This document shows positions 8,543 to 52,484 of a stretch of DNA of 64,000 bases, one piece after another. Under the pieces are notes generated by a model that was given only the letters and a program-made list of their open reading frames with translations, made no database searches and had not been told where the DNA came from. This DNA is from Clostridium massiliamazoniense (GTDB taxonomy: Bacteria > Bacillota > Clostridia > Clostridiales > Clostridiaceae), in assembly GCF_001403635.1 (NCBI RefSeq), contig NZ_LN879468.1, positions 2,018,347 through 2,082,346 on the forward strand. Direction: 5' to 3'. The position numbers were made by a program, and so were the translations under genes. How positions within the stretch are numbered: position 1 is the first letter of the stretch; each line of letters opens with the position of its first letter.

Positions 8543-8557
8543 ATCATATGTAAGCAC

Positions 8558-8648
8558 GGAGAGATGGTCGAGTTGGTTTAAGGCACCGGTCTTGAAAACC
8601 GGCGTACCTTTGCGGGTACCGTGGGTTCGAATCCCACTCTCTCCGCCA
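8558..8648 (+). tRNA. tRNA-Ser (TGA), copy 1
   Basis: A type II (long variable arm) cloverleaf. The acceptor is GGAGAGA/TCTCTCC, discriminator G, encoded CCA, anticodon loop CTTGAAA (TGA). It differs from copy 2 (9260-9350) by one base in the variable-arm loop (G here, A there). Confidence 0.97.
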
Positions 8649-8681
8649 TTTTTTTTATCCAAAAATAAAATGGTATAATAT

Positions 8682-8772
8682 GGAGAATTACTCAAGTGGC
8701 TGAAGAGGCGCCCCTGCTAAGGGCGTAGGTCGGGTAACTGGCGCCAGGGTTCAAATCCCTGATTCTCCGCCA
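8682..8772 (+). tRNA. tRNA-Ser (GCT), copy 1
   Basis: A type II tRNA with acceptor GGAGAAT/ATTCTCC, discriminator G, CCA, anticodon stem CGCCC/GGGCG and loop CTGCTAA (GCT). It pairs with the TGA isoacceptor 33 bases upstream. The sequence appears identical to the copy at 9386-9476. Confidence 0.97.
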
Positions 8773-8773
8773 A

Positions 8774-8806
8774 AACACCTAGTAAAAATACTAGGTGTTT
8801 TTTGTT
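8774..8806 (+). terminator. terminator of first tRNA-Ser pair
   Basis: The stem AACACCTAGTA/TACTAGGTGTT is followed by T6. The same hairpin follows the second tRNA pair. Confidence 0.9.
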
Positions 8807-9023
8807 ATATTAATTTATTAGTTTTATTATAAATTTCAATTGTTTCATTATTTTTATTTAGTAAAAATTGCTTAATATCTTTAGTTTTTATAGCTATGAA
8901 ATTTTCTTTGATTTTTATATATTCAAGTTTATTATAGTAAATTTTATTATTTATATTTTCATTAAATACACTCAAATAATTATCAGTTAGTGTTAAGTTA
9001 CATTTTTTCTGTTTTATAGTCAT
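8805..9023 (-). CDS. hypothetical 72-residue protein between duplicated tRNA pairs (possible YcxB-like fragment)
   Basis: A lysine- and asparagine-rich 72-residue frame. Its pattern (LSVFNENINNKIYYNKLEYI ... FIAIKTKDIKQFLLN) loosely resembles the beta-rich core of YcxB/PH-like domains, such as those at 36946-37938 and 38220-38792. No convincing ribosome site is visible upstream, and its end abuts the tRNA terminator. It may be a gene remnant caught between the duplicated tRNA units, or a chance frame. Confidence 0.3.
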   Translation of the reverse strand: MTIKQKKCNLTLTDNYLSVFNENINNKIYYNKLEYIKIKENFIAIKTKDIKQFLLNKNNETIEIYNKTNKLI

Positions 9024-9212
9024 TTAATTACATAATATCTTAATTAGAATATTTCATGGGTGATTATAGGAAATATTTACTGATATTTAATGGAATAGAT
9101 ATAATTCACTTTTATTAAAGTAATAGTAGAATGGTTAAAGGGGCTTTAAAGTAGGATTAATACTAATGTTTTTAATTATAAATAATTAAATAAAAATTTT
9201 TTTAAAAAATTG

Positions 9213-9241
9213 TTGACAATAAAAAGGTAGGTTGATATAAT
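9213..9241 (+). promoter_or_regulatory. promoter of second tRNA-Ser pair
   Basis: A perfect TTGACA (9213-9218) and a perfect TATAAT (9236-9241) are separated by 17 bases. Confidence 0.9.
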
Positions 9242-9259
9242 AATAAATGTGTTCGACAT

Positions 9260-9350
<91 letters not shown>

Positions 9351-9385
9351 CATTAAAAATTTATATTTTTAATAAATGAAGGCAT

Positions 9386-9476
9386 GGAGAATTACTCAAG
9401 TGGCTGAAGAGGCGCCCCTGCTAAGGGCGTAGGTCGGGTAACTGGCGCCAGGGTTCAAATCCCTGATTCTCCGCCA
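9386..9476 (+). tRNA. tRNA-Ser (GCT), copy 2
   Basis: A type II tRNA with anticodon loop CTGCTAA and CCA end, apparently identical to 8682-8772. It lies 35 bases after tRNA-Ser(TGA) copy 2. Confidence 0.97.
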
Positions 9477-9511
9477 AAAAACACCTAGTAAAAATACTAG
9501 GTGTTTTTTGC
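9477..9511 (+). terminator. terminator of second tRNA-Ser pair
   Basis: A copy of the AACACCTAGTA/TACTAGGTGTT hairpin with T6 that also ends the first pair. Confidence 0.9.
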
Positions 9512-46361: not shown

Positions 46362-46527
46362 ATCAATTTATTCTCTATTCATTAATAATATTTACATTTT
46401 TTTAACTGTACGTATATTTATTTTTAGCTATAATGAAATCACAAAAGGCAAAGAAAAATATAGAAATTTTATTAGAAAATATATACAAATAGAAAAATAG
46501 AAATTAAGAAACGTGAGGGGAATTATT

Positions 46528-47301
46528 ATGAAAAGAACAAATATTTTAGGAATTTTAGGAGCAGCAACATTATTATCAGGAGTAGCTTTTTCAGCAGTAC
46601 CAAGCATTACAGCAACAGCATCTCCAGCTCAACAAAATGTAAGATTATTAGCAAACAGAAATACAAAAGTAGTTACAGCAAATGGATTAAATGTTAGAGC
46701 AAAAGCATCAATAAATTCTTCAAGATTAGGGATTTTACCAAAGGGTTCAAAAGTTGAAGTTATAGGACAAGAAGGAAATTGGTCAAAAATTATGTACAAT
46801 GGAAAAGTAGCTTATGTAGCATCAAGTTATTTAGCTAACGGAACTAGTGGAACTAGCACAAGCCAAGCAAAACCACAAGGTACAAGCCAAAAAGCAAAAG
46901 TAGTTACAGCAAATGGACTAAATGTTAGAGCAAAAGCATCAATAAATTCTTCAAGATTAGGAATTTTACCAAAGGGTTCAAAAGTTGAAGTTATAGGACA
47001 AGAAGGAAATTGGTCAAAAATTATGTACAATGGAAAAGTAGCTTATGTAGCATCAAGCTATTTAGCTAACGGAACTAGTGGAACTAGCACAAGCCAAGCA
47101 AAACCACAAGGTACAAGCCAAAAAGCAAAAGTAGTTACAGCAAATGGACTAAATGTTAGAGCAAAAGCATCAGTAAATTCTTCAAGATTAGGAATTTTAC
47201 CAAAGGGTTCAAAAGTTGAAGTTATAGGACAAGAAGGAAATTGGTCAAAAATTATGTACAATGGAAAAGTAGCTTTTGTTAGTGCGACATACCTTAAATA
47301 A
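46528..47301 (+). CDS. secreted protein with three tandem SH3b domains
   Basis: 257 residues from the ATG at 46528 (GAGGGGAA upstream). A GTG at 46513 overlaps the site. A signal peptide (MKRTNILGILGAATLLSGVA..., to about residue 32) is followed by three bacterial SH3_3 domains at about 47-102, 124-179 and 201-257, each starting KVVTANGLNVRAKAS. They are joined by identical 21-residue linkers rich in G, T, S and Q. The domains are almost identical in DNA, with a 231-bp period. There is no catalytic domain, so the protein is probably a peptidoglycan-binding wall protein. A terminator follows. Confidence 0.85.
   Translation: MKRTNILGILGAATLLSGVAFSAVPSITATASPAQQNVRLLANRNTKVVTANGLNVRAKASINSSRLGILPKGSKVEVIGQEGNWSKIMYNGKVAYVASSYLANGTSGTSTSQAKPQGTSQKAKVVTANGLNVRAKASINSSRLGILPKGSKVEVIGQEGNWSKIMYNGKVAYVASSYLANGTSGTSTSQAKPQGTSQKAKVVTANGLNVRAKASVNSSRLGILPKGSKVEVIGQEGNWSKIMYNGKVAFVSATYLK
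46666..47295 (+). repeat. 231-bp coding tandem repeat (2.7 units)
   Basis: Units begin at about 46666, 46897 and 47128, each encoding one SH3b domain plus linker. Only a handful of bases differ (for example GGATTA/GGACTA, AGTTAT/AGCTAT and one A-to-G). Such fresh repeats can gain or lose units by recombination. Confidence 0.9.
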
Positions 47302-49137: not shown

Positions 49138-49379
49138 ATATAAAAGTATAAATTGAATAATAACTATTTATTGATAATAAAATAAAAAAGGATTATCATT
49201 TTAATGATATTAATTATTAAACGACTAATAATTGGAAAATTAATGATGTTACGTTCTTAGATAAAATCAAATAGATTTAAAATTTATTGGATAAACCTTA
49301 AATAAATCGAAGGTTATGTCTGAGATAAGCATAGTTTTATTTAAGAAATTAATGAAAATTGACAGCTGGAGGAGTGACA

Positions 49380-50372
49380 ATGGGACATAGATTAAGCATT
49401 TCAAATAGTGAAAGTTTAATTAATGAACTAAAAAAAGAGTATAAAATATATGGTCCTAAAAAAGTAATAAAATATAATGATTTTTTTGAGGAGGAAGTTA
49501 TTGCTTACGATGAAATAAATTCTATTAGTGAGATTAATTATAAAGAGAAATCTGAATATCCAATTAAAGAAATAATATTAACAATAACTAAAACTATATA
49601 TTATGAAGATGGAAATTTAAAAATAAATAATTTAGAGGATGACAAAGATATTATTATTTTTGCAAGAGCTTGTGATATTAATGCACAATTAAGGCAAGAT
49701 AATATATATTTTAAAAATGAAGAAGATGAATTTTACAAAAACTTGAGAAAAAAGGTAAAGTTTATATGTATTGAGTGTGATAAAAGTTTTGATAATTGTT
49801 TTTGTGTATCAATGGGAAGTAATAAAACTAATAATTATAGTATGGCTATTAAATTTAGCGAAAATAATCTTCTATTTGAAGTTAAAGACAATAAATTTTT
49901 TAAGTATTTTATTGGCAGTGAGGAATTTGATTATAAAATTAGATTTATTGAAAGTAATAAATTTAAAGTTCCAAACTTAAATATAAAGAGTGATAAGGAA
50001 TTTGAAAAGCTTAACAATCTTAAATTATGGGAAAATTTTAATGAAAAATGCATAGATTGTGGAAAATGTAATTTTGTTTGTAGTGTATGTTCATGTTTTG
50101 CTACCATAGAATTAAAAAAAAATAGAAAAAGTTCTGAACAAATTCATGTTTTTTATGATACAGAAGGTTTTGATGCCATGATGGGTGGATATAATTTTAT
50201 GAAATCACAGAGTGAAAAAATAAAAAATAAGATATTTTCTAAGTTCTATACGTATAAAAATAAATTTGGAATGCCAATGTGTGTTGGATGTGGAAGATGC
50301 ATTGATAATTGTTCTGAAGGAATATCTCTGGTAAATATAGTAAACGAACTTTCAGAAGAAATAGAAAAATAA
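49380..50372 (+). CDS. AsrA-like 4Fe-4S dicluster protein (orphan anaerobic sulfite reductase subunit A homologue)
   Basis: 330 residues from the ATG at 49380 (GGAGGAG upstream). It matches sulfite reductase subunit A/hydrogenase beta-type proteins: ARACDINAQLRQDNIY, then CIECDKSFDNCFCVSMG. Two ferredoxin-like clusters follow, CIDCGKCNFVCSVC (about residues 221-234) and CVGCGRCIDNCSEG (about 307-320). AsrA passes electrons to the AsrB flavin and AsrC sirohaem subunits. No asrB or asrC lies beside it, so the partner and substrate are unknown. It is single and not closely linked to neighbours. Confidence 0.8.
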   Translation: MGHRLSISNSESLINELKKEYKIYGPKKVIKYNDFFEEEVIAYDEINSISEINYKEKSEYPIKEIILTITKTIYYEDGNLKINNLEDDKDIIIFARACDINAQLRQDNIYFKNEEDEFYKNLRKKVKFICIECDKSFDNCFCVSMGSNKTNNYSMAIKFSENNLLFEVKDNKFFKYFIGSEEFDYKIRFIESNKFKVPNLNIKSDKEFEKLNNLKLWENFNEKCIDCGKCNFVCSVCSCFATIELKKNRKSSEQIHVFYDTEGFDAMMGGYNFMKSQSEKIKNKIFSKFYTYKNKFGMPMCVGCGRCIDNCSEGISLVNIVNELSEEIEK

Positions 50373-50432
50373 TATAAGTTATAGTATTGGGCAACACTAA
50401 CTTTAATAATAAAAGAAGAAGGTGTTTATGAA

Positions 50433-51572
50433 ATGATAGACCTTTTAATGAGTATATTTGATGGACATAATGAAGCAAGTATATTATTGTCAGAAAAATA
50501 TAAACCTAAAAAAATATTATTTTTTTATTTGACTAGCAAGGAAGCATATCGACTTACAAAGTTTAAAGAATATTATACAAAAAAATTCCCTAATATAGAG
50601 TTTTGCTATGAAAAAATTAATATTAATAATCCTATGGAAATTGAAAATATTATAATGAAATATAAAGCTAATGAAAATATATTTAACGTTACTTCGGGAA
50701 AAAAAGTAGCTCTTTTAATGGTTTATAGTTTAGCTTTAAAAAATTATATTCAATGTAAGTATGTTGATATAGAAAAGGAATTAATTATAGATTTTTCAGA
50801 TAAGGAAATTAATATAAGTAAAAATAGTTTTGTTGATTTAAATATAGATGATATTATAAAAAGCGTTGGAGGTTCAATAATAGTAGACTCAACAGAAATT
50901 TATAATAGAGAAGCTATAACTTGCATAACTTATTGGATAGCAAAGCATCTTGAAATTTGGGAAGAAATAAAAAGTGATCTACAGATGAATGATGTTTTTA
51001 TAAGAGATGAATGTAATCCGGAAATAATGAAAATAGATAAAAATATTTTAAGTAAAGATAAAATGGAATTTTATTATAGGGCATTAAATTATTTAAAGAA
51101 TTTAGAAATGATAGCTTATAAGAATTCTGATGATTTTATAAAGGTATATTTTTTAAATGACTTCATAAAAGGTTTTATATTTAAAAGTGGTACTTGGTTA
51201 GAGGTATTAACAAAAAATATAATTGAAGAAATAAAAGAAATTGATGATATAAAAAGTGGATTATTATTTCTTTGGAATGATAGTCAAAGTAGAGTTAAAA
51301 ATGAATTAGATGTAGTTGCAATAAAAGATTCTATATTAATTTGTATTTCTTGCAAGGATTCAAAGAAATATGATGAAAGAGCTTTAAATGAATTAAATGT
51401 ATATGCTAATCAATTAGGTGGGGAAAATGTTAAAAAGATATTAGTAGCTACAATGGTACCAGCAAAACCTGTGGTAGAATTAAGAGCAAAAGAAATGGGG
51501 ATAAATATAGTTTTATTTAATGGTTCAATAGAAGGATTTAAAGAAGAACTTAAATCAATAATTTTAAAATAA
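50433..51572 (+). CDS. CARF-domain PD-(D/E)XK nuclease, Card1/Can2 (DUF1887) family, orphan
   Basis: 379 residues. The N-terminal CARF-like Rossmann domain has the ligand-loop NVTSGKKVALL (residues 85-95), equivalent to the NITGGTK of Card1. A winged-helix linker region follows. The C-terminal restriction-like nuclease shows GTWLE (253-257), NELDVV (290-295, metal ligand D293) and ICISCKD (303-309, K308). The usual E of the ExK motif is S306. Relatives are CRISPR type III effectors switched on by cyclic oligoadenylate to cut DNA or RNA. No cas gene or CRISPR array occurs in the window. Confidence 0.78.
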   Translation: MIDLLMSIFDGHNEASILLSEKYKPKKILFFYLTSKEAYRLTKFKEYYTKKFPNIEFCYEKININNPMEIENIIMKYKANENIFNVTSGKKVALLMVYSLALKNYIQCKYVDIEKELIIDFSDKEINISKNSFVDLNIDDIIKSVGGSIIVDSTEIYNREAITCITYWIAKHLEIWEEIKSDLQMNDVFIRDECNPEIMKIDKNILSKDKMEFYYRALNYLKNLEMIAYKNSDDFIKVYFLNDFIKGFIFKSGTWLEVLTKNIIEEIKEIDDIKSGLLFLWNDSQSRVKNELDVVAIKDSILICISCKDSKKYDERALNELNVYANQLGGENVKKILVATMVPAKPVVELRAKEMGINIVLFNGSIEGFKEELKSIILK

Positions 51573-51603
51573 GCTGATGTTTAAGACCTCAGCTTATTTT
51601 AAT
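51570..51603. terminator. bidirectional terminator between CARF-nuclease gene and psd
   Basis: AAAATAAGCTGA pairs with TCAGCTTATTTT across a short loop, between convergent genes, with T/A tracts on both sides. Confidence 0.85.
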
Positions 51604-52484
51604 GATATTCCTATTTTTTCACCCATAGAAACTTGTGTTTCAAAACCTTTATTGGTTTGTTTAATTATATCACTATCTATTTTTACAGTATCTTTTTTAA
51701 AGAAAAGTATAGTTGTAGAACCACCAAATTTAAAAAAGCCTTTTTCTTCTCCTCTTTTTACAGGAATATTACTTTGGTAACTTTGAATTATTGTTCCAAC
51801 GCAAGTGGCTCCAACTTCTATTAAAATAACATCATCAAAATTTTTTGAATTAAATATAGACCATTCTCTTTTATTTTTACAAAAAAGTTTAGGTATTTTT
51901 TCTAAGGCTATAGGATTAACAGAATAATAAGAGCCTTTTATTTTTTTTGTAGGTCCACATATGCCATCATCAATGAAATGAAATCTATGGTAATCAGTTG
52001 GACAAAGTCTAAGGATAAGACATGTTCCACCTTCATATTTATTTGCGACAACATCATTGGATATTAATTCTCTAAGTGAATAAGTAAAGCCTTTTACTTG
52101 AACTAAAGCATTCATATTGATGTTTTCAAAGGCAAATAGCCTTCCATCTCCCGGTGAAATTAGGGAGGTAGTTTTTTTATCTATAGGTCTAGCGGAATCA
52201 ATAAGTTTTCTGCTAAAAAAGTCATTAAAATTTCTGAATTCATGTAGATCTTTTTCACATAATTCTGTATCAATATGAAATTGTTCTACAAATTTAGGAA
52301 TTTTCTTTTTACTTAGACGACTGCTACAATAAAGTCCGTAAACTCTAGAAAACATTTTTTTCTTAACAAAGAGCTCAACCATTCCCTTACCAACTGGTGA
52401 GCAATAAGACCAATTAATATAATTTAGTCCAGCAACGTTTTCTATATCATAATCTTTAGTTTCTCTATTATAAATTTTAATCAT
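51594..52484 (-). CDS. psd: phosphatidylserine decarboxylase proenzyme
   Basis: A 296-residue PSD-B-type enzyme making phosphatidylethanolamine. Recognisable blocks are FNDFFSRKL (about residues 85-93), SPGDGRL (about 110-116), [10 protein letters not shown] (about 165-174) and VGATCVGTI. The self-cleavage motif GGST occurs within [13 protein letters not shown] (about 256-268). The common form is LGST, so the first residue is G here. The serine becomes the pyruvoyl group. AAGGGGAG precedes the ATG. Confidence 0.93.

What the first reader, a model, noticed from the sequence alone, without database searches (positions are those of the whole stretch)
50433..51572. CARF-nuclease (Card1/Can2-like) far from any CRISPR system
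The protein has the CARF loop NVTSGKK (85-91) and a restriction-like fold (GTWLE, NELD, SCK) in the order and spacing of Card1/Can2, the cyclic-oligoadenylate-activated effectors of type III CRISPR. Nothing in 64 kb resembles Cas10, Csm/Cmr or an array, and the gene sits alone between an AsrA-like gene and psd. The motif acid E is S306, so the nuclease may be altered or use another acid. It may answer a non-CRISPR nucleotide signal or be a stand-alone defence or stress gene.
Basis: partly seen in the sequence, partly recalled or inferred. Interest (0 to 1): 0.8.

Follow-up and report, generated by a model that had tools for sequence, protein, structure and literature searches.

The report
Stand-alone CARF nuclease in Clostridium
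A gene that looks like a CRISPR-linked, alarm-triggered nuclease sits as an ordinary inherited chromosomal gene, usually next to psd, in many Clostridium-type genomes that mostly lack the matching CRISPR system, which suggests that it answers some other signal.

Summary

Added: (1) The gene is in 73 of 206 held genomes of its relatives' family; psd lies convergent downstream in 58 of 72 loci; some non-carriers show an empty site. It looks vertically inherited, not mobile. (2) 8 of 73 carriers have a Cas10, none within the fetched flanks; 58 of 73 have neither Cas10 nor a SMODS cyclase. (3) S306 is probably not damage: 108 of 108 aligned SxK homologues carry an acid at 320 or 317, whereas seven of eight ExK relatives seen carry Lys at 320. 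This resembles the relocated acid of some restriction enzymes. SxK homologues beside Cas10 exist, so the variant is probably active.

Ligand and role are untested. New variant of a known kind.

The parts
50433..51572 (+). CARF-PD-(D/E)xK nuclease gene, 379 aa (DUF1887/PF09002, PADLOC CARF4 group)
50414..50422 (+). Shine-Dalgarno-like AGAAGAAGG, 10 nt before the ATG
   Evidence: read from the sequence; no promoter assigned
50433..50852 (+). CARF (sensor) domain, taken as residues 1-140; 31% mean pairwise identity among 71 proteins
50685..50705 (+). CARF loop NVTSGKK, residues 85-91; K91 aligns with cA4-contacting K99 of Can2
   Evidence: Can2 residues from PMC7969007, passages
51168..51569 (+). 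PD-(D/E)xK nuclease domain, taken as residues 246-379; 58% mean pairwise identity among 71 proteins
51189..51203 (+). GTWLE, residues 253-257; E257 the same in 72 of 72
51300..51311 (+). NELD, residues 290-293; N290, E291, D293 the same in 72 of 72; aligns with VC1899 E291/D293
51348..51356 (+). SCK, residues 306-308, where VC1899, Can2 and Cdn1 have ECK
51390..51392 (+). E320 on the following helix (315-332): proposed relocated catalytic acid
   Evidence: role inferred
51564..51602 (.). hairpin between the CARF gene and psd, probably a shared terminator for both strands
   Evidence: fold -17 kcal/mol, z -6.7; role inferred; the terminator scan did not list it
51594..52484 (-). psd, phosphatidylserine decarboxylase; conserved convergent neighbour
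49359..50372 (+). AsrA-like 4Fe-4S protein; upstream neighbour, not seen beside the gene in the relatives' gene-order table

Best explanation
A stand-alone, ligand-gated nuclease. Shown by computation: the CARF-nuclease fold, invariant nuclease motifs, purifying selection, a conserved place beside psd, and no link to type III CRISPR in its clade. Inferred: two subunits pair through their CARF domains and bind a nucleotide-type second messenger at the dimer interface; binding opens the cleft between the nuclease domains, as described for Can2; the site E257, D293, K308 with E320 (in place of the missing ExK acid) binds metal and cuts nucleic acid, slowing growth or blocking phage. The messenger is probably not made by a type III system; its source is unknown.
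For: Fold and domain order. Active site: N290, E291, D293, S306, C307, K308 the same in 72 of 72 and in 96 of 96 of a wider set (that set left out, by length, one ExK relative, L163); SxK rows with acid at 320 or 317: 108 of 108 of a 112-row alignment. ExK relatives with Lys at the place of 320: VC1899 and Aeromonas L180, and by eye Can2, L163, L206, L212, L179. SxK homologues lie beside Cas10 in L201, L204, L207, L208, L210, L213, L215, so effectors keep the variant. Selection: whole-gene dN/dS 0.09-0.25 in the 30 printed of 34 close pairs; no stop inside any listed match. Place: psd downstream in 58 of 72 loci, window included; six empty sites with the same flanks among 20 looked at. Independence: Cas10 in 8 of 73 carriers and at least 21 of 133 non-carriers.
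Against: No ligand, activity or phenotype was measured. VC1899, the closest solved relative, showed only weak RNase activity not regulated by cA4 (PMC7969007, passages). Of the four cA4-contacting residues named for Can2 (S19, T42, K99, Y118) the window has K91 and Y110 but D10 and L33. The acid swap rests on few independent events: the ExK/SxK split and one clade of 8 rows with K320/E317 (support 86). ExK relative L173 shows no clear Lys at the helix position, and type III-D-linked relatives L211, L214, L176 have lost the Lys of SxK (SCS/SCT). 8 of 73 carriers do have a Cas10.
Confidence: 0.5

Rival explanations
1. A type III CRISPR effector acting in trans: it waits for cyclic oligoadenylate from type III systems that come and go by horizontal transfer.
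For: SxK homologues do sit in type III loci in the phylum; 8 of 73 carriers have a Cas10 elsewhere in the genome, three of them type III-D; K91 and Y110 of the cA4 pocket are kept.
Against: Cas10 is no commoner in carriers (8 of 73) than in non-carriers (at least 21 of 133; only 80 of the 133 were searched with the Cas10d model). Csm1 over its cut-off in 10 of 206 genomes, one of them a carrier. No Cas10 found in the fetched flanks (up to 9 kb each side, cut at contig ends) of 71 carrier loci.
Confidence: 0.15
2. A housekeeping DNA repair or RNA-processing nuclease whose CARF domain serves mainly for pairing or binds an ordinary metabolite.
For: Fixed chromosomal place; in a number of relatives genes that I take for addAB (families 34 and 9) or sbcCD (families 19 and 20) lie a few genes upstream (these gene names are recalled, no family search was run on them); Hjc similarity below cut-off; no match in phage records or IMG/VR and one in plasmids.
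Against: No match in 133 of 206 genomes of the group, so not essential there; addAB- and sbcCD-like genes are not its constant neighbours; the CARF domain is far less conserved (31%) than the nuclease (58%), as one would expect of a sensor.
Confidence: 0.2
3. A VC1899-like effector with an unregulated or very weak nuclease: a decaying relic.
For: S306 replaces the ExK acid; VC1899 activity is weak and not cA4-regulated, and its pocket has Asp9 where the window has D10 (PMC7969007, passages).
Against: Nuclease motifs invariant; nuclease-domain dN/dS 0-0.20 in the 30 printed pairs; no stop inside any listed match; compensating acid.
Confidence: 0.1

Closest known systems
VC1899 (PDB 1XMX), orphan DUF1887 protein
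   Different: VC1899 has ECK and Lys at the helix position; window has SCK and E320; window has K91 and Y110 where VC1899 is reported to have R96 and V115
Can2 / Card1 (type III ancillary nucleases)
   Different: No type III locus; SxK with E320 instead of the ECK with Lys seen in Can2 (the Card1 helix residue was not seen); two of four named cA4-contacting residues of Can2 differ
PADLOC CARF4--CARF_PDDEXK, model PDLC01881
   Same: Full-length match, 491 bits: a model that already covers this protein
   Different: The table gives a name only; no synteny or active-site variant is stated there
CCGG-family restriction enzymes (NgoMIV, Cfr10I, BsaWI)
   Same: PD..xxK..E layout with the second acid on the helix after the Lys strand (PMC4652773 and PMC551604, passages); here K308 to E320
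   Different: Otherwise unrelated; spacing K-x11-E here against K-x12-13-E; no sequence-specific DNA recognition expected

Membership tests
DUF1887/PF09002 Card1-like endonuclease | Score above the Pfam cut-off | tested here: met
   55.4 bits against 26.4
CARF domain superfamily | Rossmann-like CARF fold in residues 1 to about 130 | tested here: met
Can2/Card1 type III effector | Gene lies in or near a type III CRISPR locus | tested here: not met
   No Cas10 hit in the window or in the fetched flanks of 71 relatives
Can2/Card1 type III effector | Canonical ExK acid | tested here: not met
   S306 in the window and in 72 of 72 aligned proteins; but SxK also occurs in homologues beside Cas10, so this feature is weak as a test
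Can2/Card1 type III effector | cA4-contacting residues S19, T42, K99, Y118 of Can2 | tested here: inconclusive
   K91 and Y110 kept; D10 and L33 differ (sequence alignment only)
Can2/Card1 type III effector | Nuclease activated by cyclic tetra-adenylate | not testable with these tools
   needs biochemistry
PD-xxK-E (relocated acid) nuclease site | Acid missing from ExK, conserved acid on the next helix | tested here: met
   108 of 108 SxK rows have acid at 320 or 317; helix 315-332 follows strand 301-308
PD-xxK-E (relocated acid) nuclease site | Carboxylate lies in the active site in space | not tested
   model coordinates not available

The most novel reading that the evidence does not exclude
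Clostridium carries a CRISPR-independent and CBASS-independent nucleotide second-messenger pathway whose receptor is this inherited CARF nuclease with a relocated catalytic acid; the synthase and messenger are still undiscovered.
Probability: 0.3. Interest if true: 0.85.

Novelty: new variant of a known kind. Interest (0 to 1): 0.55.

Why it matters
CARF proteins are studied mainly as receivers of CRISPR alarm molecules. A receiver kept in a fixed chromosomal place, mostly without a known sender, makes a concrete question testable: what turns it on? The SxK-E covariation gives a simple test of how these nucleases cut, and warns against reading a missing ExK acid as a dead nuclease.

Tried and rejected
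Rejected: dead enzyme (invariant motifs, compensating acid, low dN/dS). Rejected: mobile defence gene (tblastn at E 1e-5: no match in 50,697 phage records; one of 72,556 plasmid records, an 809-kb plasmid; IMG/VR scan: 98 stretches matched a pattern, none a relative). Rejected: conserved operon with the AsrA-like gene (upstream neighbours vary). I first thought that SxK marks stand-alone proteins; SxK genes beside Cas10 (L201, L204, L207, L208, L210, L213, L215) disproved that.

Cas10 counting, told in full. PF22335 at E<=1e-3 hits 94 of 206 genomes, 53 over Pfam's cut-off; TIGR02578 hits 140, 10 over cut-off. I first counted only E<=1e-15: 25 genomes, 5 of them carriers. So the first threshold had missed type III-D. 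A Cas10d search of all 73 carriers found no further one; of 80 of the 133 non-carriers it added one, G135; 53 non-carriers were not searched with it. Counts: carriers 8 of 73, non-carriers at least 21 of 133. Fisher p 0.12 was computed on the earlier 5/73 against 20/133.

The first local Cas search used only Clostridial Csm/Cmr-type proteins; it was widened. In one search four of the nine positive phylum loci (L204, L208, L213, L215) gave the queries themselves. Foldseek PDB and viral searches never ran; the VIA second look ran. Literature: listings (25 of 109 papers; 25 of 51; 15 of 24; 12 of 413; 5 of 5) showed no title on this Clostridium gene or on an SxK-E CARF nuclease; no search named psd. 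The CARF classification paper 10.1093/nar/gkaa635 is not held and was not read.

Rows dropped: carriers G057 and G065 (fragments at contig ends) were not fetched; L103 (partial) was left out of alignments; L163, L167 and L178 left out of the 96-row set by length; L212, L214 and L206 not in the 112-row alignment; G281 and G824 not fetched with wide flanks; 20 non-carrier psd loci were picked by hand from the list, not at random; the tree used 80 rows.

Full report

Surroundings. The upstream gene is AsrA-like, the downstream gene is psd on the other strand. Between them and the CARF gene a hairpin at 51564-51602 folds at -17 kcal/mol (z -6.7) and may end both transcripts (inferred; the consensus scan does not list it). 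No Cas-like match and no CRISPR-like repeat is in the window. No genome is held for the window; that it is a Clostridium relative is inferred from its nearest matches.

Distribution. The four named hits are Clostridium. The PADLOC model finds the gene in 73 of 206 held genomes of the family of G004, the genome of C. gasigenes, one match each except G197; no listed match has a stop inside. It has no match in the phage set, no relative in IMG/VR and one match in the plasmid set. I fetched 71 of the 73 carrier loci. In 58 of 72 loci (these 71 and the window) psd lies downstream in opposite orientation, in 37 as the next gene; some of the other 14 are cut by contig ends. Among 20 non-carrier psd loci picked by hand, six (L220, L221, L222, L226, L227, L230) show a gene of the HATPase (histidine-kinase-type) family directly beside psd with the same genes beyond as in many carriers, and tblastn finds no remnant in any of the 20. 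psd itself is in 190 of 206 genomes. I read this as an old resident of one chromosomal site, lost (or never gained) in parts of the group.

Independence from CRISPR and CBASS. Clear Cas10 by PF22335 (E<=1e-15) is in 25 of 206 genomes, 5 of them carriers: G006, G043, G061, G140, G144 (tally). Nine more carriers had weaker hits over Pfam's cut-off; fetched and scanned, six are GGDEF proteins and three (G054, G070, G138) are type III-D Cas10. A Cas10d search of all 73 carriers added none. So 8 of 73 carriers have a Cas10, against at least 21 of 133 non-carriers (20, G135; 53 of the 133 not searched with Cas10d). The Csm1 model is over its cut-off in 10 of 206, one a carrier. In all eight carriers the Cas10 lies on another contig or, in G144, more than 1 Mb away. 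Local searches with Cas10, Csm, Cmr and type III-D proteins hit none of the 71 carrier loci. The same searches find Cas10 in 9 of 16 phylum-level loci (four of these supplied the queries) and in 1 of 30 class-level loci, L176, whose PF09002 gene is not SxK. SMODS cyclases are in 18 of 206 genomes, 8 of them carriers. 58 of 73 carriers have neither. Incomplete genomes may hide some.

The active site. N290, E291, D293, S306, C307, K308 are the same in 72 of 72 aligned proteins and in 96 of 96 of a wider set, which left out the ExK relative L163 by length. In a 112-row alignment 108 rows have SxK: 100 carry E or D at 320 and the other 8 carry K320 with E317, one helix turn before. ExK relatives carry Lys at that place: VC1899 and an Aeromonas type III-B protein by the alignment, Can2 and L163, L206, L212, L179 by eye; L173 is unclear. 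The 8 K320 rows form one clade (support 86), so the independent changes are few. This is the layout described as PD-XXK-E for Cfr10I and NgoMIV (PMC551604, passages) and as PDX21-53KX12-13E for the CCGG family (PMC4652773, passages). Some type III-D-linked relatives have also lost the Lys (SCS/SCT: L211, L214, L176) but keep a Glu on the helix (by eye). SxK proteins occur beside Cas10 in L201, L204, L208, L210, L213 and L215 (Cas10 models matched) and in L207 (83% identity to the L208 Cas10), which argues that SxK works.

The sensor. Residues 1-140 have 31% mean pairwise identity, residues 246-379 58% (71 proteins). Of the Can2 residues that contact cA4 (S19, T42, K99, Y118; PMC7969007, passages) the window has D10, L33, K91, Y110. 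N13 (69 of 71), D112 (66) and N85 (65) are nearly invariant. A nucleotide ligand is plausible; cA4 itself is uncertain.

Selection and history. Close pairs have whole-gene dN/dS of 0.09-0.25, nuclease domain 0-0.20, CARF domain 0.09-0.35 (30 of 34 pairs printed). In the tree of 80 rows the window lies in a group of 46 rows (starred, 95) with no nearby Cas10, and rows beside Cas10 fall in several places; long branches make the order of events unsure.

Known or new. That genes of each CARF family can lie outside CRISPR loci was reported in 2014 (PMC4012209, passages), and VC1899 was tested and called an orphan (PMC7969007, passages). The listings show no title on this Clostridium gene or on the SxK-E site; they are capped lists, and the 2020 CARF classification paper could not be read. 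Verdict: a new variant of a known kind, function open.

Noticed in passing
window 8555-8778 and 9257-9482: A pair of tRNA-Ser genes (TGA, GCT) is duplicated: the copies are 98-99% identical, 702-704 bases apart.
   Followed up: partly
window 49359-50372: AsrA-like gene whose direct neighbours are a NicO transporter gene and the CARF gene; it scores just under the TIGR02910 cut-off. Whether AsrB or AsrC lie elsewhere was not searched.
   Followed up: no
L240 and L241 (G197:C5:51503-82670): One full CARF-nuclease gene and three 3' fragments, 99.65-100% identical, alternate with long repeated surface-protein-like genes; recent amplification or an assembly effect.
   Followed up: partly
L211:738-2021, L214 near 9001-9318, L176 near 1502-1771: Type III-D-linked relatives have SCS or SCT in place of SCK: the catalytic Lys is missing at its usual place while a helix Glu stays.
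   Followed up: partly
window 46513-47301: Secreted-looking protein with three near-identical SH3-like repeats (domain name recalled, not tested).
   Followed up: no
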